IMG/VR virus record: IMGVR_UViG_3300017714_000209
Span: 1-21,470 of that record
Reading direction: 5' to 3' (one strand)
Origin: a virus
DNA: 21,470 nt
Numbering within the stretch: the stretch's first letter is position 1; every line of letters begins with the position of its first letter. Positions 1 through 20,884 of the stretch are shown one piece after another. The notes beneath the pieces were generated by a model that was not told the origin of the DNA, made no database searches, and was given only the letters and a program-made list of their open reading frames with translations. The translations under genes were made by a program, and so were the position numbers.

Positions 1-2290
1 GACCTGAAACTTCTTGATATCTATCTGAACCTATTTGTGAAAGCACTTCATCTGAGCCTTGCCCGAATGGTCGTAAAAACATATAACCCCATTTACCTGG
101 GCCCCAATCTGCACTTCCCTGAAAGTTGCATGTTAAACTTCCTTGTGCATATCTATTACCATTACCATATGTTAAATACATTTCTTCAGCAAAAGCAGTA
201 TTTATTTTTTTATGTAATAATCTTGCTGCTGAACTACTTCCACCTTTAGAAGAAGCTGCTGTTGTTGGCAGTTTATCACCGTTTTTCTTTCTAACATTAA
301 AATACGGATATGTGCCTTCGAATAAACGTAAGCCATATTTATATGCATCGTATATATCAATAATAGGTGATGATAAAACACCTGTTTCAAAACCTGATCT
401 GTTTGTTAAAAGAGAACTTTCAATATACGTTCCGTTTATTCTATTAGCTTCTGCCCAAGTTGCATTAAAATCAAAAACATTATCACCACTCAAAGGTAAT
501 AAAGAGTTTTGCAATAACTCATCTGTTTTAATAGAAACATTGCTCTTTACTGAAGCATCTTCAGCTGATAAAGGGTATTGGATTGGATATATAGCTTCTG
601 CATCATAACTTTCAACAAAAGATGAATACTGTTTATTTAAAAAATCTTTGTTTAGCTGTGTATTCCAGTGCCGAGGTTTTATTCTATATATTAAAGTTGG
701 TTGGGCACCTAATGCTTTTGTTATCAGCCCGCGAGGTTTAAATGCTGTGCTTCCTTCTGAAACTAATGTATCTTTGCCTTCAACTTTTCTAACCTCACCG
801 GTAACATCAGATGTTAAATCTTCTTTATAGAAAGGTATTAAAGTAGGTATGAGTTCTATCATTCTATCATCAGAAACAAATGTTCCTATTACTCTATTCC
901 AAGCAGATCCTCTTGTATTTAAAGCACCCTGAAACTTTGTTATAAATCTTTGATATGGAGGTTTTTCTGGCAACATCTGATACCATATTGAGCTCCTTGG
1001 CACATCTGATTTTTTTGTTGCAACTACGATTATATCACCTATTCTATCACCAAGTAAAGTATTATTTATACCACCTGTTCTTGATGAACGTGGAGTTGGG
1101 CCTGTTGATGCGTTATCTACAGATGAATCAACTTTACCTCTTGCTCCAGCTGAACTACCACCTGCTTTTGCTCTGGCTTTTGCTCTTGCAATGATTTCTT
1201 TACGTGATAAAAAACCAAGCTCTCTTCCTGCCACTGATGAAAGCATATCCATTGATTTAAAATATTGATATTGGCTTCCAAGGCCCATAAGAAATGCTGT
1301 AAATTGCATATCACCAGAAGTCGTCCAAGTGCTGCCGGCCGATGTATTTGTTTGTTGATTGCCTACACCTACTTGTGCTGCAACACCTTTGCTCATAGTA
1401 TCATGATATGCTTTTGATATTTTTACAAACTCTAACACACTCATTCCTACTGAAGGTGGCACTAACATATAACCAAAGTTTGTTATGAAGTTTTGTATTA
1501 CTTCTTGAAAATCATGTTCAGCAGAAGCAAAATCAGCCATCTCTTTAATGTGTTCTGCCCATTCTTTGCTCGACATAATAAAGTTTGATAAAAACTTCAT
1601 TTCACTATTATTAGCAACACTTTCAGTTGAACCATCTTCAGATTTTTGCAAGTTTCCTGGCATAACAACATAGTTGCAGTTTCTTATGGGCTCAATAAAA
1701 TCTCTTGCTTCAATTTGAACCTGTGCATAGTTATCTATACCATCAACATTTGAAAATGTTTGCTGTATGCTTGTTATCATACCAAAAAAAGAAGTAGTTC
1801 TCGGTTTAACTTTAGTTGTTGTTAGCTTTAAAGAACCATTATCTAACTTTTCATAAACAGAAGCTGTTTCTGTTTTCATATCTAATGATGCATAATGCCT
1901 AACTGTTATAAACTGGCCTGTTGTTATAGTATCAACTTCATCTGAAAATACTGTTCTCATTAATGAAAAAGGCATTTTTAAGGTTAAGCTAAGATTTCCG
2001 CCTTTTAAGCTTTCATTTCTTGAAACTGAAGTAATATAACTTGTTAAAGAAATAGGTATTGGAGAGCTCCACGTATGTAATAGATAGAAATCGTTTTTAT
2101 TATTTTTAGATTCGTTATAAGTTTCCTTTAATGAACGTGATATAACATTACGCATATTCTCTCTATTAGGTATAGTGCTTGTTTTTAACCTTGCAGATAT
2201 CGTCATATCACTAAACTCATAATTTTGAGATGCAGGTGCTGCTCCTGATGCTTTAATAGGAGTTCCTGCTGTTGAACCACCTGTTGCCAT
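1..2290 (-). CDS. Baseplate hub-like tail protein (3' end outside window)
   Basis: An uninterrupted reading frame of 763 codons starts at ATG 2290-2288 and is still open at the window edge, so the C-terminus is missing. The start shares one base with the tape-measure stop (TAATG) and has an AGGAG seven bases upstream, which points to coupled translation. Residues about 80-200 look like the first beta-barrel of hub proteins (gp27 or late-control-D type): a segment DTITTGQFITVRHY, then FFGMITSIQQTF, then ARDFIEPIRNC. Residues about 705-740 (YGNGNRYAQGSL followed by a Gly/Trp-rich stretch) resemble the closing hub domain. Residues 366-408 are a basic Ala/Gly/Ser linker. Its place directly after the tape measure fits a hub that closes the tail tube. 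I infer the function from position and fold-like patterns; another baseplate protein remains possible. Confidence 0.6.
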   Translation of the reverse strand, partial: MATGGSTAGTPIKASGAAPASQNYEFSDMTISARLKTSTIPNRENMRNVISRSLKETYNESKNNKNDFYLLHTWSSPIPISLTSYITSVSRNESLKGGNLSLTLKMPFSLMRTVFSDEVDTITTGQFITVRHYASLDMKTETASVYEKLDNGSLKLTTTKVKPRTTSFFGMITSIQQTFSNVDGIDNYAQVQIEARDFIEPIRNCNYVVMPGNLQKSEDGSTESVANNSEMKFLSNFIMSSKEWAEHIKEMADFASAEHDFQEVIQNFITNFGYMLVPPSVGMSVLEFVKISKAYHDTMSKGVAAQVGVGNQQTNTSAGSTWTTSGDMQFTAFLMGLGSQYQYFKSMDMLSSVAGRELGFLSRKEIIARAKARAKAGGSSAGARGKVDSSVDNASTGPTPRSSRTGGINNTLLGDRIGDIIVVATKKSDVPRSSIWYQMLPEKPPYQRFITKFQGALNTRGSAWNRVIGTFVSDDRMIELIPTLIPFYKEDLTSDVTGEVRKVEGKDTLVSEGSTAFKPRGLITKALGAQPTLIYRIKPRHWNTQLNKDFLNKQYSSFVESYDAEAIYPIQYPLSAEDASVKSNVSIKTDELLQNSLLPLSGDNVFDFNATWAEANRINGTYIESSLLTNRSGFETGVLSSPIIDIYDAYKYGLRLFEGTYPYFNVRKKNGDKLPTTAASSKGGSSSAARLLHKKINTAFAEEMYLTYGNGNRYAQGSLTCNFQGSADWGPGKWGYMFLRPFGQGSDEVLSQIGSDRYQEVSG

Positions 2291-4503
2291 TAGAAAGCTC
2301 CTAACGTTATGTTTTTACATTCAACATCTAATAATCTGTAATTTACCATATAGAAACCTCTCTCGTCTTTACATAATGATTCAGGTTTAGTTTTTAATAA
2401 ATCTTGCGCCATTACACCACTAAAAGTTGCACAAGGATTATGTTTATATTTCCAAGTATATACCTTTAAGCCTGAAGGTGAATAGCCAATGTGTTTAATG
2501 TTTTCTTTTAATCTTTCGTCGCTAAAGATGTTTGCAAATTTTTGAATCGCTAAAGGTATCGCCGTTGCTATTGTTCTCATGACGCCAGAAAGGCCTATCA
2601 TAGTATCTATTAAAGCCTCCATATCTTTTACATCTAAACCATCAAGTAGTTTCTGTTCGATTCTCTCATTTGTTTTAATGAGTGCCTTAATGTTTTCTAT
2701 TTGATTATCGTATGTATCTTTTAGTTTTCTTGAGTTAGATTCTGCATCTGCCTTAGTTATAATAGCACCTGCATTTTTACCGCCTGTTAGAGGTGTTGAT
2801 TTGCCGCCTCCCGTTCCGATAGCATCAATCTCTTCAGTTGTATATCCCATACCCATCATTGCCATATCACCAACATCTTCGCCCAATAACTCACGAAGTT
2901 TGTTTTTCATAACAGAAGGCTCCATTCTTTCTAATAATCTTCTTGCCTTCTTAAAATCACCACCAGTTTGAGCTAAAGCATCACTCATTAGTATGTTATT
3001 ACCTAATCCTGAAAATGTGCTGCCTAACTGTTGGCCTACTTGAACGCCACCTTTCATTCTTATTCTTGAATATGCACTTGCTGCTGCATCACCTTGGAAA
3101 CTTATACCACCTCTATTTTCAAGGCCGTTTATCTGAGCATCAGTTCCTTGGCCTAAACTTATACCCATTGCTGTGAATTGCTCACCAACAGCTAATCTTG
3201 AACTTAAATATTTTTGTGCTCCTGCACCTGTTAAACCTCGAGCATTCATTTGCCCTCTTAAATCATCACCACTAAATCCCCTTAATCCATTCACACCACT
3301 ACCTCTTAGCATACCAGCATCTGCTTGCCCATACATGCCAAAACCTAAACCGCTTGAAACGGCTTTACTTAGTTCATCAGCTGTAACTCTTCTTCTTGTT
3401 CCACCACCCTGAACTATTTGTGTTGCTGCATTTAAAGCTTCACCAGCTTGCATACCTAAGTTAGAAGCAGCATTGTTTATTAGCGTTCCATTAGCCGCCA
3501 TAGGGCTTCCAGCTTGTGCCATACCTGTTGAAACACCTGAATAGATCATAGAAGGCATTTCAATCTGTGCAGCCATATTTTGACGTCCTGCTAATGCTTG
3601 TAATGGAGCAGCAAGCAAACCACCAACATATGGTATCTGAGAAACAATCTCAGCCATATTCGTTCCTGAACCCATATTTGCTACCATATTGGCGCCTTTT
3701 GCAGCAAGTTGGCCTGTACGTTGAGCTGCTCTTTGGCCTCTTGTAGATTGTGCTGCTTGTTGTGCTGCTGCTCGGCCTAATCGAGCATTCCCAGGAGTTC
3801 CCGGCACCATGCCACCTGCTCTCACCGCTATCCCTGTTGCTGTTCCACTCGTCATAGGCAAATTGCCTATCGCCGGCCCTGCGCCGAATAAACCTCGACC
3901 AAAATTTACCATACCAGTTGCAAATCTTCTACCAGCGCCACCTCTCATTTGATTTACTATAGCACCTTGATTTTGATTAAACTGAAGTGCATTTAGAGAT
4001 TGCATTGGGTCGCCAGTATCCAAAGCTTGCATCACCCGATTATCTGCTGCACTTTGCCTTGTTTGTTGCTGATTAGCACCCAACTGAGGTTGCAATCTTT
4101 GAAGCATTCTTGCATTTAATGCTCCCATATCACCACTACCGGGTAATCCTATACGACTTGGGCCAGCCATTCCTCCACCACCGCCAGCACCGCCACTTTT
4201 TTCTAAAGCTCTAATACTCTTTGTTAAATCTTTTATTGCTGCTATTAAATCTTTATTACTTGAAACAAGCTTTTTAATACCATCACCTAAGGCTTTGCCT
4301 CCACCACCAAAAGGTGAAGAACCACCGCCACCGAAAGGGCTACTTTTACCCATCATACCTGCAGCAGCAAAAGGAGGCATTGAAAAACCTCCCATACCAC
4401 CACTCATTGATGATGTTCCGAAACCTTTACCCATTGCTCTTGCTCCGGGTGATGAAGCCATCGGGGAGCCTCCGCTGAAAGGTGTGCCTTGTATTGGTCG
4501 CAT
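2290..4503 (-). CDS. Probable tail tape measure protein with C-terminal S74-like chaperone domain
   Basis: A 737-residue protein lying between the tail assembly chaperones and the hub, the usual tape-measure position. Residues 1-70 are Gly/Pro/Ser/Met-rich low complexity, about 71-97 form a charged helix, and the middle is Ala/Gly/Gln-rich with a short hydrophobic stretch (IPYVGGLLAAPLQALAG). Residues about 595-650 are helical. From residue 661 the hallmark SDERLKENI begins, followed by GVMAQDLL and a GFYMVNYRLL ending, which is the layout of the short peptidase S74 / intramolecular chaperone domain. In that family cleavage falls between Ser and Asp of the SDxRxK motif with a Ser-Lys dyad, here S661 and K666. 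At about 1.5 angstrom per residue the length would fit a tail near 110 nm. AGGAGATA precedes the ATG. The tape-measure role is inferred from context; the S74-like match is read directly. Confidence 0.65.
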   Translation of the reverse strand: MRPIQGTPFSGGSPMASSPGARAMGKGFGTSSMSGGMGGFSMPPFAAAGMMGKSSPFGGGGSSPFGGGGKALGDGIKKLVSSNKDLIAAIKDLTKSIRALEKSGGAGGGGGMAGPSRIGLPGSGDMGALNARMLQRLQPQLGANQQQTRQSAADNRVMQALDTGDPMQSLNALQFNQNQGAIVNQMRGGAGRRFATGMVNFGRGLFGAGPAIGNLPMTSGTATGIAVRAGGMVPGTPGNARLGRAAAQQAAQSTRGQRAAQRTGQLAAKGANMVANMGSGTNMAEIVSQIPYVGGLLAAPLQALAGRQNMAAQIEMPSMIYSGVSTGMAQAGSPMAANGTLINNAASNLGMQAGEALNAATQIVQGGGTRRRVTADELSKAVSSGLGFGMYGQADAGMLRGSGVNGLRGFSGDDLRGQMNARGLTGAGAQKYLSSRLAVGEQFTAMGISLGQGTDAQINGLENRGGISFQGDAAASAYSRIRMKGGVQVGQQLGSTFSGLGNNILMSDALAQTGGDFKKARRLLERMEPSVMKNKLRELLGEDVGDMAMMGMGYTTEEIDAIGTGGGKSTPLTGGKNAGAIITKADAESNSRKLKDTYDNQIENIKALIKTNERIEQKLLDGLDVKDMEALIDTMIGLSGVMRTIATAIPLAIQKFANIFSDERLKENIKHIGYSPSGLKVYTWKYKHNPCATFSGVMAQDLLKTKPESLCKDERGFYMVNYRLLDVECKNITLGAF
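2293..2523 (-). other. S74-like (intramolecular chaperone) domain coding segment
   Basis: This segment encodes residues 661-737 of the tape-measure candidate. It contains the S-D-E-R-L-K cleavage/dyad motif, SPSGLKVYTWKY, GVMAQD and a Val-Asn-Tyr near the end, all typical positions of the short phage form of the domain. In known members the domain trimerises, assists folding of the upstream protein and is then released by self-cleavage before the Asp. Cleavage here would free about 76 residues. Confidence 0.75.
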
Positions 4504-4521: not shown

Positions 4522-4869
4522 TTAAGTATATTTTGAGAAGAATTGTTGCATTGCTTCTTCTGGATTTCCACCATTAACGAATGCTTGTTCTATTTCATCT
4601 ATTATTGGGTCGCCGATTGATTCAACAAACTTTTTGTTGTTCTGATCTTCCCAGTGTCGCTGATACATCTCTTGAAATATATCATCAGGCATTGCCATTA
4701 ATGAAAACTCAACATTCTCCCAACAATATAAATCATTATCATTAAAGATATTTATGTTTGGAAGCTGTAATTTAGTTAAGCGCTGGAAAATCAATGGAAA
4801 AGCGTTGTGGTTTCTTCTCTCCGCTACCCTCATCACTGCTGTTTCGAAAGTATCGGGTTTCGTGCTCAA
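4522..4869 (-). CDS. Tail assembly chaperone, downstream frame (frameshift partner)
   Basis: This 115-codon frame overlaps the end of the upstream chaperone frame and lies directly before the tape measure, as do the lambda G-T, Mu and T4-like analogues. It is displaced +1 (equivalently -2) from the upstream frame. A TAG in this frame sits just before the first codon, so entry must occur between 4869 and about 4774. The only early start codons are TTG at 4869, with a GAGG four bases upstream, and an ATG at 4833 without a good ribosome site. The product is acidic and helical (ENVEFSLMAMPDDIFQEMYQ, ending in a Glu/Gln-rich tail). Expression by frameshift as a fusion of about 251-252 residues is the more likely reading, but independent initiation at TTG cannot be excluded. 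Confidence 0.7.
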   Translation of the reverse strand: MSTKPDTFETAVMRVAERRNHNAFPLIFQRLTKLQLPNINIFNDNDLYCWENVEFSLMAMPDDIFQEMYQRHWEDQNNKKFVESIGDPIIDEIEQAFVNGGNPEEAMQQFFSKYT

Positions 4870-5278
4870 CTAACCTCGTGGCCAAATGATAACAAAACTC
4901 TAAATCAGAACCTACAACTTCTAAAACCCACTCAGGTGGATCTTTTAACTGTGAAACAATTCTTGCTACACACTGATAACGTGTTTTTGTATCAACAGGA
5001 TAATCATCATATGCATAACCATCACATAGTCGCATAAGAATTTTATCTTGTCGTAATCTTCCTTCGCTATCTAAAATGGCAGAGCACAATGTGGCTTTCT
5101 TTAAACCCTTTTCAGTTTCGTATGATATTTCAAACTTAAGTTCTCTATCAACATACTCTTTCTTAATCATTTGTGCAACTTCTTTAGCAGCTTCTTTCTC
5201 TTTGCCAACATCTCTAACATCAACAACTGAAGCGTCTTCTGCCTTCTTTTTTAAATCAACCAAGTTTAAATTACTCAT
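4772..5278 (-). CDS. Tail assembly chaperone, upstream frame
   Basis: A 168-residue protein in the position between tail tube and tape measure that is reserved for the gpG-like chaperone in long-tailed phages. Residues 1-45 are charged and helical. The middle (LKFEISYETEKGLKKATLCS) is beta-like, and residues about 95-145 (RYQCVARIVSQLKDPPEWVL, then FCYHLATRLVEHETRYF) have the mostly helical character of the family. The last 20 residues, Ser/Glu/Lys-rich, look like a linker that a frameshift would bypass. The start follows GAGAGAGG with good spacing, and the gene has its own candidate promoter after the tube terminator. Sequence identity to a named chaperone is not recognised; the call rests on position, size and the overlapping second frame. 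Confidence 0.7.
   Translation of the reverse strand: MSNLNLVDLKKKAEDASVVDVRDVGKEKEAAKEVAQMIKKEYVDRELKFEISYETEKGLKKATLCSAILDSEGRLRQDKILMRLCDGYAYDDYPVDTKTRYQCVARIVSQLKDPPEWVLEVVGSDLEFCYHLATRLVEHETRYFRNSSDEGSGEKKPQRFSIDFPALN
4817..4849 (-). promoter_or_regulatory. Candidate ribosomal frameshift region in chaperone overlap
   Basis: Reading the upstream frame, the codons TTT CGA occur at 4849-4844. A +1 slip lets tRNA-Phe re-pair from TTT to TTC without mismatch while a potentially slow CGA waits in the A site. A second option is GGA GAG at 4822-4817, where a -2 slip re-pairs GAG with GAG and enters the same frame, reminiscent of the -2 event described for phage Mu. There is no canonical -1 heptamer, and a -1 shift would enter the wrong frame. 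Which site is used cannot be settled by inspection. Confidence 0.45.
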
Positions 5279-6133: not shown

Positions 6134-8119
6134 TTAAAAATCACTAATGTTCATTGTAAATTCAACAAAGTTTAAAGGTTTAACAACAGCTAAATCTAAG
6201 GTTATAAAAGCTGTATCATCTACAATCTCAACCTTAATGTTTCTGAAGTTTTTAATAATACCTTCATCTTTTAATCTTTTGCATCTTGTATTAACCAAGT
6301 TAATGATTCTACCAGTTGAACCTGCTAAAACTTTTGAGCCAAGTTCTTTTGTTAAGATGCTTCTTAAGAAACGTGCTGCACCTAAGATACTCTCACGAGC
6401 ACTCATTTCACAGTTAATAGTTTCGTTATCTTTATTATAAGAAGAAACTCCTCTTGCAACTTTCAATGCATTATCAAAAGCTAAATAAACACCTAACTGG
6501 CATTTTCTGATTAGTTTATCTACATCAAGCTCTCTATTGAAGTTTTCTTCTGTGCTGATAAGGTTAGGTTTCAAACCTGTTAGAGGTTGAGCGTAAGGAA
6601 TTGCACCTTGCATACACATCATAAGAAATGCAAAATACTCAGGCCCTAAATCAACAACATCGCCGTTATGATTTTGAACGCTCATACTTTGGTTGCAAAC
6701 TGCCATAAATTTGCTGGCAAACTGTGAAACAACAGTTCCATATGCTTGGTCGATTGTGCTTCCTGCAGGAGCTCCAGCATAACCTTGCCTATCACGGCTG
6801 TAAGCTAATACTTCGTCTAAGTGTAAGCTCAATGCTTTAGTTGTATCAGTATCAGTTGTTAAGCAAGTGATGAGCTGAATATCTTTTGTTCTCATAGCAT
6901 CTAAAGCAGCTTCAAAATCTGCATCAAGAGGTGCGACAGTTGTTCCGCCAGTTAAATCTCTAAACTCACTCATATTTTCTAAAACGATAGGCCAACCAAC
7001 TATTTGTGCATCAACAGGATAGAAGTTTGCAGATGCTAAAACTTTGATATATCTTTCAAACTCAGCAACGTGAGCAGTAAGATACATTTTAGCTGAGCCT
7101 GAAGCATCTTGTTCATGATACACAGCATCTAAGTTTTTAGGAGCTGCACCTGCATCATAGTTAATAGCTTGAATATCAAAATAATCGCTAAGAGGATAAT
7201 CAACGCCACTTGCTGAAATAACTGCGTTTGTTAATCCTTGCGCTAAAGCGTCGTATGATGCATAATCTGTTAGCTCGTATTGAACTGTTGCCAGAGCAGC
7301 AGCTGTATCTGTAGCTTTATCAGTATTTATTTGAACAACGTCTGCATCAAAATCACCTGTGAGATCAACGCTTTGTGTTGCAAAGATAGCACTTCCATTA
7401 CCACTATCATCATATCCATCAGCATAAAGCTCAATGTTTAAATAACGAGCAACTTCTGTTCCTTCATCAACTTGATTTGCGCCTGCACCTCTATCATATC
7501 GCTCACCACCAGTAATCCACATCTTGAATTTTTTAGCTGCTTTAGGTGTGATGTTAAATTGTTCTTGAGCGCCTGTTGCTTCTTCTGCAGCTTCGGCACC
7601 ATAAAGTGTATTTAGTTTATAAAATGCATCTAAATCAGCTGAATCAACTGAAGATTTAAAACGAATATTATTACCTTCAGCACCATATGTTAGCGATTCA
7701 AGCTTGATTGCTTTCATTAGTGTTTCATTAGCACCTGGGTTTGCACCAACGATAGTTTCTCCAACGATTGCATTTGCAGCATTAAGGTGTCGTCCGTTAA
7801 TGTAATTTGAAGCAATAGTTTCACTTCCTGCATTTACAAATGTTAAAGACGCTGCAGAAGCTGAGCTATCCACAATCGGTGATTGAAACATTTTATTAAG
7901 TAAAAGCATTTCATAATCTGTGGGGTAAAGCTCAGGAACCGTTGGGCCGCTACCGTTTCTAAAAACATTTGCGGTTTTTGGTTTGAGCTTTGGAAAGTGG
8001 CCGATAACGCACATATTCTTAGCATCTAAACTTTCTGATGCTAAAAGCTGATTGTTTATATCGACAACAACAGAGGGAAGGTAAAGATTTCTCCCTCTAA
8101 AACTTATTGAACTTGGCAT
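6134..8119 (-). CDS. Contractile tail sheath protein
   Basis: A 661-residue protein, close in size to T4 gp18. The C-terminal 110 residues have the conserved sheath handshake pattern: SARESILGAARFLRSILTKE, then VNTRCKRLKDEG, then FITLDLAVVKPLNFVEFTMN. The N-terminus (RGRNLYLPSVVVDIN) resembles the usual inner-domain start. Residues about 85-370 are an acidic Asp/Ala-rich region, likely protruding outer domains. Residues about 400-560 (VDAQIVGWPIVLENMSEFRD, then QLITCLTT and YAYS-like segments) belong to the core. It polymerises around the tube and contracts to drive the tube into the host envelope. ATG at 8119 is preceded by AGGAGATA, and a TATAAT element lies upstream in the 82-base gap. Confidence 0.92.
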   Translation of the reverse strand: MPSSISFRGRNLYLPSVVVDINNQLLASESLDAKNMCVIGHFPKLKPKTANVFRNGSGPTVPELYPTDYEMLLLNKMFQSPIVDSSASAASLTFVNAGSETIASNYINGRHLNAANAIVGETIVGANPGANETLMKAIKLESLTYGAEGNNIRFKSSVDSADLDAFYKLNTLYGAEAAEEATGAQEQFNITPKAAKKFKMWITGGERYDRGAGANQVDEGTEVARYLNIELYADGYDDSGNGSAIFATQSVDLTGDFDADVVQINTDKATDTAAALATVQYELTDYASYDALAQGLTNAVISASGVDYPLSDYFDIQAINYDAGAAPKNLDAVYHEQDASGSAKMYLTAHVAEFERYIKVLASANFYPVDAQIVGWPIVLENMSEFRDLTGGTTVAPLDADFEAALDAMRTKDIQLITCLTTDTDTTKALSLHLDEVLAYSRDRQGYAGAPAGSTIDQAYGTVVSQFASKFMAVCNQSMSVQNHNGDVVDLGPEYFAFLMMCMQGAIPYAQPLTGLKPNLISTEENFNRELDVDKLIRKCQLGVYLAFDNALKVARGVSSYNKDNETINCEMSARESILGAARFLRSILTKELGSKVLAGSTGRIINLVNTRCKRLKDEGIIKNFRNIKVEIVDDTAFITLDLAVVKPLNFVEFTMNISDF

Positions 8120-14825: not shown

Positions 14826-14925
14826 GTTTGTATGTTGGATTAGTATATCTATCCGAAGATTTCATATAAACTAACGTCCAGTAATCTATTTGTTTTTGTA
14901 GTTCATCTCTTTGTTCTTTACTCAT
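14821..14925 (-). CDS. Small 34-residue ORF overlapping the portal 3' end
   Basis: ATG at 14925-14923 starts eight bases inside the portal gene, and the frame runs 34 codons to TAA at 14823-14821, filling the whole gap between portal and the next gene. GAGG, provided by the last codons of the portal, lies six bases before the ATG, an ideal Shine-Dalgarno spacing. The product starts MSKEQRDELQKQIDYW and ends SDRYTNPTYKL, a charged N-terminal helix followed by an aromatic, polar tail. Overlap, ribosome site and gap-filling length argue for a real gene. Function is unknown; a small head or portal accessory peptide is possible. Confidence 0.65.
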   Translation of the reverse strand: MSKEQRDELQKQIDYWTLVYMKSSDRYTNPTYKL

Positions 14926-17230
14926 CATCATCCTCTATTTCATTTGCTTTAAGAATAATCTTTTCACACCAGCTCATAGCTTCTAAGCCGCCCCAAGCCA
15001 ATATCATTGTATATCCGGCATCTTCATACCATTCTTTACCTTCAGGGATATCTGCATTCTTTTCGTGACGTTTTAAGAAGCTATACATACGTTTAACTGT
15101 ATCTAAAGAAATGTTTTCTCTATTTGCTAACTGCCTTGCTCTTTTCCAACCAACTGGCGTCCCGAAATCAAAGTCGTGTTCTTCTTTAGCATCTAATGCT
15201 TTTTGTGCATTATCAGCAATATATTGAGGAACTACATATGTTTCTTCAACCTTTAATAGAGTATCTACGTTAATCTCTGTTTTAACTTCTTCTTCATTAG
15301 GTATGTTATCATTAGAAACTGATTTTTTGCTTTCTAAATGCTCTTCCCAAAGGTGCATATCAACTTTTCTTGCACCAGATTTTGAATCAAATAAGAAGGA
15401 ATAAACTCTTGCCCTCGACCAAGATTGTGGTGTTGCACCAGGGCGATGGCCTGATGTTGCATATGCTGCTAAACCTTTATCATAAACTTCTTCAATAATC
15501 TTTTTAGAAACGCCTGATACTTTACTTGCTGCACGTATAAATTCATCTTTACCGGGCTTTTTAATCTCTTCTCTTACTTCATCAGCCTTTTTAGATGTAG
15601 TGCCTTTGTTTTGTTTGGCTTTTTCAATATCTTCGTCGCCAGGGAGTGGCCCATATACTGGCTTTCCAGTTTCTCTATAAACTTTTTTACGTCGTTCTAT
15701 TTCTTTTTCACGTTTTCTTTTTGTATCTTCATCTAAACCTTCAAAGTATTCTGAAGGATGTGATTGGCCATCATTATCAAAATCAACGCTTTTATCAACG
15801 TTTTCTGTAATATCAGCAATACCTGCTTTAACACCAGCAACTTTTAGTTGAGCGTAATATGCAGCAACAACATCACCATCTTCTAACTCTGTTAAATCGT
15901 GTGAAGCTCTTATTTCATTAAGAGTTAAATACTTCATCCGATGCTCTTCAACTTTCATTTTATCAAGCAAAGAAATGCTATCTAAGTAGTTGAATGTAAT
16001 CTCAAATCTATCATCAATTTGCGAAATAATATATTTGTTTATCCACCCTTCGATACTTCTAATAAGTGGTCGCAAACCTTTTTCTTTACCCATGAGTATT
16101 CTTGCATTTGGATCAGCTGTAACAAAAGAGTTTCCGCTACCTTCATTACCAAAAACAAAGCCAATCTCTGCAGGATCCATTTGAAATACTGAACATGATA
16201 GCTTTATTAAATATTTAAGCCAGTTATCATATTCCATTTCTTTGTTGGAGTTGCTAAGGTTGATAGATGATATAGCTTCGTCGCCTTCTGGGTCGAGTTG
16301 TATTAGTGGAGTTCTTTTAGCGTTTTGAACCCCATTTAACATTTGATAAAACTCACGCCTAAATGCTCTGAAAAGGTTTGGGTTCATTTTGCTTTTAACA
16401 GCAATGATACCGTTTGCGTTTATACCATTAGTAAAGTTTGATGCATTATATGTTTCAGCTTGATAGATGTTTTGTATAACACCTACTAGCTCTTCTAACT
16501 CAGGATATCCGTATTTAAGTGAGCTTAAATCTGTTCTTGGTCGTCTAATACCAAAACATAAATCTTTTTGGCTATATTCAGCAACAACTTTGTTAGATAT
16601 TACTTGAACATATGCTGCTCTATCTTTATCTCTTCTACCAGCTTTAATCTCAGCTTCAGAGAGTTTTGCTCTTCTTACAGTTTTTGCATCAACTGGCTGA
16701 AAAGCAACAACATCGCCTAATCTATTTCTTACTATTTCAAAGTTGCACTGGTCGTATGCTAAACTATCTCTAACTATTTGCTTTAAGAAATTTTCGAAGT
16801 TAAGTTCAAAATCTGTAGGCTCTGAGCCACAATTTTCAATAAATGCTCTAAGCATCTTCATTGTTTCTTTATCTTCATCACTCGGCTCAGCTTCTGTATC
16901 TTTAAGTTTTATTGAAAAACCTAAATCATCATCATCTGTAAATCGAGCGAACTCAGCAACCTGATTAATCCTTGTTTGTAAGATACTTGATACGATTGGG
17001 TGTTTTGTTAAGTTTTCTAACTGATGATAAGTGATAGCACCACGGCCACCTACATCATAGTAATAATCACTTTTACCTTTCGAATCACTTAACATACTAA
17101 TATTAGCTGAATCGTATGGGTTTAACTCATACGACCTTGCTTCTTTTTGAAGTTCATCAATAACGCTTTTATTTATTTCGTTATCTTCTCCTTCATTTGC
17201 TGCTTTAAATCTTTCAAACCAATTAGGCAT
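14918..17230 (-). CDS. Portal protein with long C-terminal extension
   Basis: A 770-residue protein. Residues about 65-460 have portal character: LTKHPIVSSILQTRINQVAE, then FENFLKQIVRDSLAYDQCNF, VAFQPVDAKTVRRA, FTNGINANGIIAVKS and FQMDPAEIGFVFGNEG with the stem and wing elements of HK97/SPO1-type portals. It forms the ring through which DNA is packaged and to which the neck attaches. Residues 461-770 are an extension, first a basic linker, then a module at about 571-614 (SGVSKKIIEEVYDKGLAAY, HRPGATPQSWSRARVYSFL) and a second at about 692-755 (GWKRARQLANRENISLDTVK, MILAWGGLEAMSWCE). I recall both modules as tails of phage head proteins, including prohead proteases. ATG at 17230 follows a CGGAG. 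No terminase gene is adjacent in this window. Confidence 0.85.
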   Translation of the reverse strand: MPNWFERFKAANEGEDNEINKSVIDELQKEARSYELNPYDSANISMLSDSKGKSDYYYDVGGRGAITYHQLENLTKHPIVSSILQTRINQVAEFARFTDDDDLGFSIKLKDTEAEPSDEDKETMKMLRAFIENCGSEPTDFELNFENFLKQIVRDSLAYDQCNFEIVRNRLGDVVAFQPVDAKTVRRAKLSEAEIKAGRRDKDRAAYVQVISNKVVAEYSQKDLCFGIRRPRTDLSSLKYGYPELEELVGVIQNIYQAETYNASNFTNGINANGIIAVKSKMNPNLFRAFRREFYQMLNGVQNAKRTPLIQLDPEGDEAISSINLSNSNKEMEYDNWLKYLIKLSCSVFQMDPAEIGFVFGNEGSGNSFVTADPNARILMGKEKGLRPLIRSIEGWINKYIISQIDDRFEITFNYLDSISLLDKMKVEEHRMKYLTLNEIRASHDLTELEDGDVVAAYYAQLKVAGVKAGIADITENVDKSVDFDNDGQSHPSEYFEGLDEDTKRKREKEIERRKKVYRETGKPVYGPLPGDEDIEKAKQNKGTTSKKADEVREEIKKPGKDEFIRAASKVSGVSKKIIEEVYDKGLAAYATSGHRPGATPQSWSRARVYSFLFDSKSGARKVDMHLWEEHLESKKSVSNDNIPNEEEVKTEINVDTLLKVEETYVVPQYIADNAQKALDAKEEHDFDFGTPVGWKRARQLANRENISLDTVKRMYSFLKRHEKNADIPEGKEWYEDAGYTMILAWGGLEAMSWCEKIILKANEIEDDDE

Positions 17231-20464: not shown

Positions 20465-20884
20465 ATGAGTGATAAAAAATACGAGAATGGTTTCCAAAAT
20501 CCCCAAATACAAAAAGAGTTAGGAAAACGTGGTGCTGCTTCATCTCTTAAGAAACAAAGAGAAGAAGAAAGCGGTTTTTTTGATGCCGAAAATAAAGTTA
20601 AGGGTGGTAAAGCTGCACAACCTATACTTAAAGAAAGTAATAAAGGTTTATATAACGAAGAAGTTAGAAAAGCAGGCACTAAAGCTGCTGTTAAATCTAA
20701 AAACTTTATGAATAACCAACAGAAAAGTTGCCCTAACTGTGGATATACTAACAACCCAGGCGTAGTCGGTCGTCATATGAAAAAGTGCGTAGAAACTAAA
20801 GAGTTATCTGAAGATGAAAAGAAAACTGAAGAGCTTCTAAAGCAACAAGCAACAGAAGCTCTTCGAAGCTTATTAGATATTTAA
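20465..20884 (+). CDS. Homing-endonuclease-like zinc-finger protein lacking a nuclease motif
   Basis: A 139-residue basic protein, the only gene on the plus strand. Residues about 8-80 hold three degenerate repeats (NGFQNPQIQKELGKRGAAS, SGFFDAENKVKGGKAA, KGLYNEEVRKAGTKAA) with the pattern G-(F/L)-(Q/F/Y)-x-(N/D/E)----K-G--A. I recall such Gly/Lys repeats from the DNA-binding parts of phage HNH homing endonucleases. Residues 89-108 form a C-x2-C-x11-H-x3-C finger (CPNCG, then GRHMKKC), also typical of those proteins. I see no HNH, GIY-YIG or LAGLIDADG catalytic motif. GAAAGGATAAAATAATG gives a clear start. The gene ends inside the opposing fibre gene by 12 bases. It may be a nuclease remnant or a DNA-binding protein. 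Confidence 0.7.
   Translation: MSDKKYENGFQNPQIQKELGKRGAASSLKKQREEESGFFDAENKVKGGKAAQPILKESNKGLYNEEVRKAGTKAAVKSKNFMNNQQKSCPNCGYTNNPGVVGRHMKKCVETKELSEDEKKTEELLKQQATEALRSLLDI
20820..20864 (-). terminator. Perfect 10-bp inverted repeat, likely terminator of the fibre gene
   Basis: GAAGAGCTTC at 20828-20837 and GAAGCTCTTC at 20855-20864 are perfect inverted copies separated by 17 bases. On the minus strand, nine bases past the fibre-protein stop, the stem is followed by AGTTTTCTTTTC, a mostly-T tail. It therefore looks like an intrinsic terminator for the minus-strand gene, although it lies within codons of the plus-strand gene. On the plus strand the tail after the stem is not T-rich. Confidence 0.65.

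What the first reader, a model, noticed from the sequence alone, without database searches (positions are those of the whole stretch)
2290..2535. Tape-measure candidate ends in an S74-like self-cleaving chaperone domain
The C-terminal 77 residues carry SDERLKENI and GVMAQD, the signature of the intramolecular chaperone domain, with the Ser-Lys pair intact (S661, K666). This domain is known on fibres, tailspikes and some ejection proteins. Here it sits on a protein in the tape-measure slot. Tape measures in lambda-like phages are cleaved at the C-terminus during tail assembly, usually by other means, so autocleavage by an attached trimeric chaperone would be a different route to a mature tape measure and would imply a trimeric ruler. 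The domain is read from sequence; its role is inference.
Basis: partly seen in the sequence, partly recalled or inferred. Interest (0 to 1): 0.75.

Follow-up and report, generated by a model that had tools for sequence, protein, structure and literature searches.

The report
Tail ruler with ejection-protein S74 cap
In a small group of uncultured contractile-tailed phages, the protein in the tail-ruler position ends in a short, probably self-cutting domain otherwise found on proteins that short-tailed phages eject with their DNA, which suggests an unusual way of finishing the ruler; no cutting has been shown.

Summary
The 737-aa ORF (4503..2290, minus) ends in a Peptidase_S74 core (Pfam 25.6 bits, cut-off 22), with S661 and K666 intact. 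It sits in the tape-measure slot of a contractile tail: sheath, tube, two overlapping tail-chaperone frames, then this ORF, then baseplate genes. The domain is conserved in four related contigs.

The interpretation needs changing. This is not the fibre/tailspike form. It is a short form that stops 77 residues after the Ser, and its nearest families are podophage DNA-ejection proteins. It lacks the C-terminal coiled coil that drives trimerisation in MYRF and has no upstream beta-helix, so the domain does not by itself imply a trimeric ruler. The expected cut is before Ser661 (F660|S661), not after it.

The catalytic positions are strictly conserved (Ser and Lys in 41/41 non-redundant and 34/34 separately retrieved relatives). 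The 30 residues before the Ser are usually the protein's most hydrophobic stretch.

Best model: an autocleaving C-terminal cap over a hydrophobic, possibly membrane-active helix of the ruler. T5 tape-measure processing, cut next to its hydrophobic stretch, is a parallel. Cleavage itself is untested. No tape measure annotated with S74 appeared among the phage records listed.

The parts
2290..4503 (-). tape-measure-slot protein, 737 aa, mostly predicted alpha-helical
   Evidence: ORF; gene order; AF2 mostly helical but low confidence (pLDDT 43); conserved in four related contigs
2293..2523 (-). short-form Peptidase_S74 core, residues 661-737
   Evidence: Pfam; PHROG 6121 and 4287 (DNA ejection protein); PDB profile hits 6F45, 7DC3, 3GUD; AF2 core pLDDT about 84-91
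2521..2523 (-). Ser661, putative nucleophile; expected scissile bond F660|S661
   Evidence: aligned with endoNF S911 and MYRF S587; invariant 41/41 and 34/34
2506..2508 (-). Lys666, putative general base
   Evidence: aligned with endoNF K916 and MYRF K592; invariant in the same sets
2524..2613 (-). hydrophobic stretch, residues 631-660, directly before the Ser (predicted helix 642-659)
   Evidence: 98th hydropathy percentile within the protein; helix in AF2 model, low confidence
4522..5278 (-). two overlapping tail-assembly-chaperone-like frames (5278..4772 and 4869..4522; +1/-2 frame relation)
   Evidence: same frame relation in L010; about 36-nt overlap block identical in window, G003 and L010
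5527..6117 (-). tail tube candidate, 196 aa
   Evidence: position between sheath and chaperone frames; only a PHROG match of unknown function
6134..8119 (-). contractile tail sheath, 661 aa
   Evidence: phrog_279 tail sheath E 3e-24
2..2290 (-). next gene after the ruler (854 aa in relative G003), baseplate/hub candidate by position only
   Evidence: no family match

Best explanation
The protein is the tape measure of a contractile-tailed phage. Its C-terminus carries a short S74 core of the kind found on podophage DNA-ejection proteins. Shown by sequence: the S74 core, the intact dyad, the tape-measure slot, the hydrophobic stretch ending exactly at the Ser, and conservation in four relatives. 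Inferred: the core folds behind the hydrophobic helix and keeps it soluble and correctly placed during assembly. Once rulers are bundled in the tail, by their own helices, Ser661 assisted by Lys666 cuts the F660|S661 bond. The mature ruler (about 67 kDa) then ends in an exposed hydrophobic helix that helps breach or line a host membrane on ejection. The 8.9-kDa cap is either lost or kept at the hub, as the cut-off piece is in T5.
For: S74 above the curated cut-off. Nearest families are 'virion structural' and 'DNA ejection protein', both with the domain at their extreme C-terminus. Nearest annotated relatives are ejection or injection proteins, several in the first ejection-gene slot of P22-like podophages. 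Ser, Asp, Lys and Gly, all mutationally important in endoNF/MYRF, are invariant in 41/41 non-redundant short forms. Ser, Asp and Lys are also invariant in 34/34 proteins retrieved on other motifs. Hydrophobic stretch before the Ser: 32 of 44 non-redundant proteins at or above the 90th percentile, binomial p about 6e-23. T5 TMP is cut between its hydrophobic stretch and its C-terminal part, and three C-terminal copies stay in the hub (PMC10038345; DT57C, PMC10713586). T7 gp14-like ejection proteins form outer-membrane pores (PMC8954989).
Against: The C-terminal coiled coil that drives trimerisation and hence cleavage in MYRF is absent, as is any candidate for the helix-borne residue near its reaction centre. 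No cleavage data for any short form were found in the papers I could read. The hydrophobic stretch is borderline for a membrane helix (Kyte-Doolittle 19-mer 1.57), and it is weak or missing before some short forms (L143, L098, L060). Foldseek found no PDB fold match.
Confidence: 0.5

Rival explanations
1. The short S74 core is not cut. It stays on the ruler as a fixed plug or adaptor that binds the baseplate hub, or as an ejection/packaging tag, and the motif is kept for folding reasons.
For: The trimerisation helix known to be needed for cutting is missing. The same short core ends many proteins carried inside virions, as expected of a targeting or docking module. Some carriers have no hydrophobic stretch before it.
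Against: Ser and Lys are strictly kept while the positions between them vary (SDITLK, SDKNLK, SDRVLK, SDIALK), which fits catalysis better than packing.
Confidence: 0.35
2. One reading: a full intramolecular chaperone that trimerises the ruler and then cuts itself off, as on tailspikes.
For: Homology to the tailspike/MYRF domain and an intact dyad.
Against: No C-terminal coiled coil, helical rather than beta-helical upstream sequence; nearest families are ejection proteins, not fibres.
Confidence: 0.1
3. The protein is not the tape measure but an internal ejected protein that happens to occupy this slot.
For: No tape-measure family matches it; its S74 type is that of ejection proteins; it is rich in Gly and Ala.
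Against: It directly follows the overlapping tail-chaperone frames and precedes baseplate genes. In the 57-kb relative the only longer proteins are the fibre-like 839- and 1021-aa proteins and the 773-aa portal, all outside the tail module, and the 854-aa protein after the ruler.
Confidence: 0.05

Closest known systems
S74-tailed podophage ejection proteins (PHROG 6121, PHROG 4287; Salmonella phage 7-11 gp20, phiGT1_17, Vibrio phage PVA1, Pseudoalteromonas H6/1 gp17)
   Same: short S74 core at the extreme C-terminus, Ser and Lys kept, often a hydrophobic stretch just before it
   Different: those are mostly 280-480 aa proteins, in short-tailed phages where the phage is annotated; here it ends a 737-aa ruler in a contractile tail
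Tailspike/fibre intramolecular chaperones (endoNF/K1F, T5 side fibre, GA-1 neck appendage 3GUD)
   Same: homologous core and Ser-Lys dyad
   Different: no C-terminal coiled coil and no triple beta-helix predicted upstream
MYRF ICA domain (7DC3)
   Same: S74 core used outside a viral fibre; Ser, Asp, Lys, Gly match
   Different: MYRF keeps the coiled coil and cuts in mid-protein
T5/DT57C tape measure (pb2) processing
   Same: ruler cut next to its hydrophobic stretch (T5); C-terminal piece stays as a trimer in the hub
   Different: no S74 domain mentioned; siphophage; the cut is after R1127 and involves another route

Membership tests
Peptidase_S74 (Pfam PF13884 core) | profile match above the curated cut-off | tested here: met
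   25.6 bits against 22; 29.4 bits for the C-terminal 151 aa and 48/48 relatives matching at E<=0.01
Peptidase_S74 (Pfam PF13884 core) | Ser-Lys dyad in SDxxxK | tested here: met
   S661/K666; invariant 41/41 and 34/34 in relatives
Peptidase_S74 (Pfam PF13884 core) | autocleavage at the Ser | not testable with these tools
   needs protein; no published test found for short forms
Intramolecular chaperone (endoNF/MYRF type) | other mutationally important residues (K1F N912/MYRF D579, K1F G956/MYRF G626) | tested here: met
   D662 and G696 by alignment
Intramolecular chaperone (endoNF/MYRF type) | C-terminal coiled coil that drives trimerisation | tested here: not met
   chain ends 77 aa after the Ser; no helix of that kind in the model; fibre-type S74s in the same sample carry it
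Intramolecular chaperone (endoNF/MYRF type) | triple beta-helix or beta stalk upstream | tested here: not met
   upstream region predicted helical, low confidence
Intramolecular chaperone (endoNF/MYRF type) | fold | tested here: inconclusive
   many of the best BFVD matches are proteins named for this domain; no PDB fold match
Tape measure protein | gene directly after tube and overlapping tail-chaperone frames | tested here: met
Tape measure protein | long, mostly helical protein in a tail module | tested here: met
   737 aa, predicted elements are helices apart from the S74 core, low confidence
Tape measure protein | sequence match to a known tape-measure family | tested here: not met
   none in Pfam or PHROGs; residues 1-635 match nothing in 50,697 phage records. 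Named by position, not filed in a sequence family
Tape measure protein | length sets tail length | not testable with these tools
   uncultured phage

The most novel reading that the evidence does not exclude
Short-form S74 domains are a separate functional class: self-removing caps on hydrophobic, membrane-active C-terminal helices of ejected virion proteins, shared by podophage ejection proteins and, here, a myophage ruler. Cutting does not need the domain's own coiled coil and arms a membrane-entry helix during assembly.
Probability: 0.35. Interest if true: 0.75.

Novelty: new variant of a known kind. Interest (0 to 1): 0.5.

Why it matters
Why and how tape measures are trimmed at the C-terminus is poorly understood. 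Here the presumed protease is built into the ruler, so one point mutation (S661A) would separate trimming from tail-length control. It also links rulers of long tails to ejection proteins of short tails through a shared C-terminal module, and it suggests that the many S74-tailed ejection proteins may be processed, which I found no published test of.

Tried and rejected
Fibre-type chaperone: rejected on the missing coiled coil and the nearest families. Another gene as the tape measure: rejected after reading all ORFs of 100 aa or more in the 57-kb relative. S74 on other tape measures: none annotated as such among the records listed; no phrog_279 sheath in 49 and 12 other carrier contigs, but only one sheath family was tested and many contigs are fragments. 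Longer S74 carriers L065, L077, L107 (617-800 aa) looked like possible rulers but lie beside lysozyme-like genes with no tail module seen. Two podophage marker families rang in none of the 50 environmental contigs, one of them in no control either, so tail type there stays largely untested. A PDB fold search gave only noise. A scan of genome contigs for the ruler found no relative. Papers: no proteomics of a short S74 protein's C-terminus was found.

Full report
What is there. The ORF 4503..2290 on the minus strand encodes 737 aa. Its C-terminus matches Pfam Peptidase_S74 over residues 661-707, 25.6 bits against a cut-off of 22, and PHROG 6121 over 657-724 at E 2.6e-16. Ser661 and Lys666 are in place. 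The C-terminal 151 aa alone scores 29.4 bits. A profile of ten relatives matches solved S74 domains: a long tail fibre (6F45, E 1e-6), the MYRF ICA domain (7DC3, 3e-6) and the GA-1 neck appendage (3GUD, 2e-4). That profile includes relatives, so it tests the family more than the single sequence; the window protein alone found no S74 entry in the PDB. This is the only S74 domain in the record and in each of three relatives; the fibre-like proteins have none.

Is it the tape measure? The window is a whole 21.5-kb virus record. Gene order is portal, protease-like, scaffold-like, major capsid, connectors, sheath (phrog_279, 3e-24), tube candidate, two overlapping frames, this ORF, then a further large gene. 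The 57-kb relative G003 continues with an 854-aa protein, a protein with a sheath-initiator-like end, and Baseplate_J. The two overlapping frames have a +1/-2 relation in both the window and the more distant relative L010, and a block of about 36 nt in the overlap is identical in window, G003 and L010 although the genes around it differ. That is the usual arrangement of tail-assembly chaperone genes just before a tape measure (general knowledge). No tape-measure family matches by sequence, so the naming rests on position and on a mostly helical prediction of low confidence.

Conservation. Three relatives with sheath about 95% identical, and one with sheath 65% identical (L010), carry the same C-terminus with Ser and Lys.

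Which kind of S74? The form here ends 77 residues after the Ser. In 54 relatives retrieved from viral contigs with the domain at the C-terminus, the tail is almost always 63-82 residues. The best PHROG matches are virion structural protein 6121 and DNA ejection protein 4287, in both of which the match ends at the profile's end, while fibre families continue beyond it. The nearest annotated phage proteins are ejection or injection proteins, several in the first ejection-gene slot of P22-like podophages, and the phiGT1 record already notes Pfam S74 at that protein's C-terminus. Fibre-type S74s in the same sample carry a C-terminal heptad helix that the short forms lack. The AF2 model shows a confident beta-rich core and no such helix.

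What that means for mechanism. In MYRF the C-terminal coiled coil is the main driver of trimerisation, and cleavage happens only in trimers; S587A and K592A abolish it; the cut is between P586 and S587 (PMC8326128). In endoNF and MYRF the residue after the Ser and a downstream Gly also matter (PMC3742443). The short form has all four residues but not the coiled coil. So the domain alone does not argue for a trimer, and cleavage, if it happens, must get its assembly trigger elsewhere, for example from the ruler's own helices. Trimeric rulers are known anyway (PMC10038345, PMC10713586).

Is the dyad under selection? In 41 non-redundant short forms Ser, Asp, Lys and the Gly are invariant, though Asp and Lys were part of one search motif there (Ser was not). 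In a second set retrieved on motifs elsewhere in the protein, 34 of 34 sequences with the region intact keep S-D-x-x-x-K while the middle positions vary. These sequences are related, so the count overstates independence.

The hydrophobic stretch. In the window protein the 30 residues before Ser661 are at the 98th hydropathy percentile of the protein. In 44 non-redundant short-form carriers, 32 are at or above the 90th percentile, where 10% is expected (binomial p about 6e-23). Some carriers lack it. T5's ruler is cut between its hydrophobic stretch and its C-terminal part, and T7 gp14-like ejection proteins insert in the outer membrane. Together these suggest the cap-and-release model; the membrane step is inference.

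How rare is it? No record listed was annotated as a tape measure under the match, but lists were partial and annotation is sparse. None of 61 other carrier contigs had a sheath of the family found here, with limited sensitivity. I found no paper describing S74 on a tape measure in the searches made; one of them shows the domain in an enterococcal tail-associated endopeptidase architecture.

Verdict. Real and correctly located; a known domain in a new protein context, of the ejection-protein subtype; autocleavage plausible but unproven.

Noticed in passing
L063, L066, L068, L069, L071, L074, L076, L079-L082, L084-L087, L089, L090, L095-L097, L103: Large proteins (about 1,000-1,850 aa) carry a short S74 core in the middle (Ser at about 280-640) followed by roughly 560-1,300 more residues; self-cutting would split them in two.
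   Followed up: partly
window 4772-4869; L010 7318-7379: Overlap of the two tail-chaperone-like frames holds a ~36-nt block identical between genomes whose surrounding genes differ, as expected of a programmed +1/-2 frameshift site.
   Followed up: partly
window ~3690-4190 (ruler residues ~105-272): This part of the ruler is very divergent between the window and relatives whose sheath is 95% identical, while both flanks are almost identical.
   Followed up: no
L013 11978-13912: 644-aa baseplate protein combines a weak LysM match and a sheath-initiator (gp25-like) end in one chain.
   Followed up: no
window 14918-17230: Portal protein carries an extra DUF5824 domain (residues 492-619) after the portal core.
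   Followed up: no
L010 2654-3328: An extra ORF resembling a GIY-YIG homing endonuclease (by eye) sits between connector genes, absent from the window.
   Followed up: no
window 20465-20884 (+): A 139-aa ORF with a CxxC...HxxxC zinc-like motif lies on the opposite strand between two fibre-like genes, conserved in G003.
   Followed up: no
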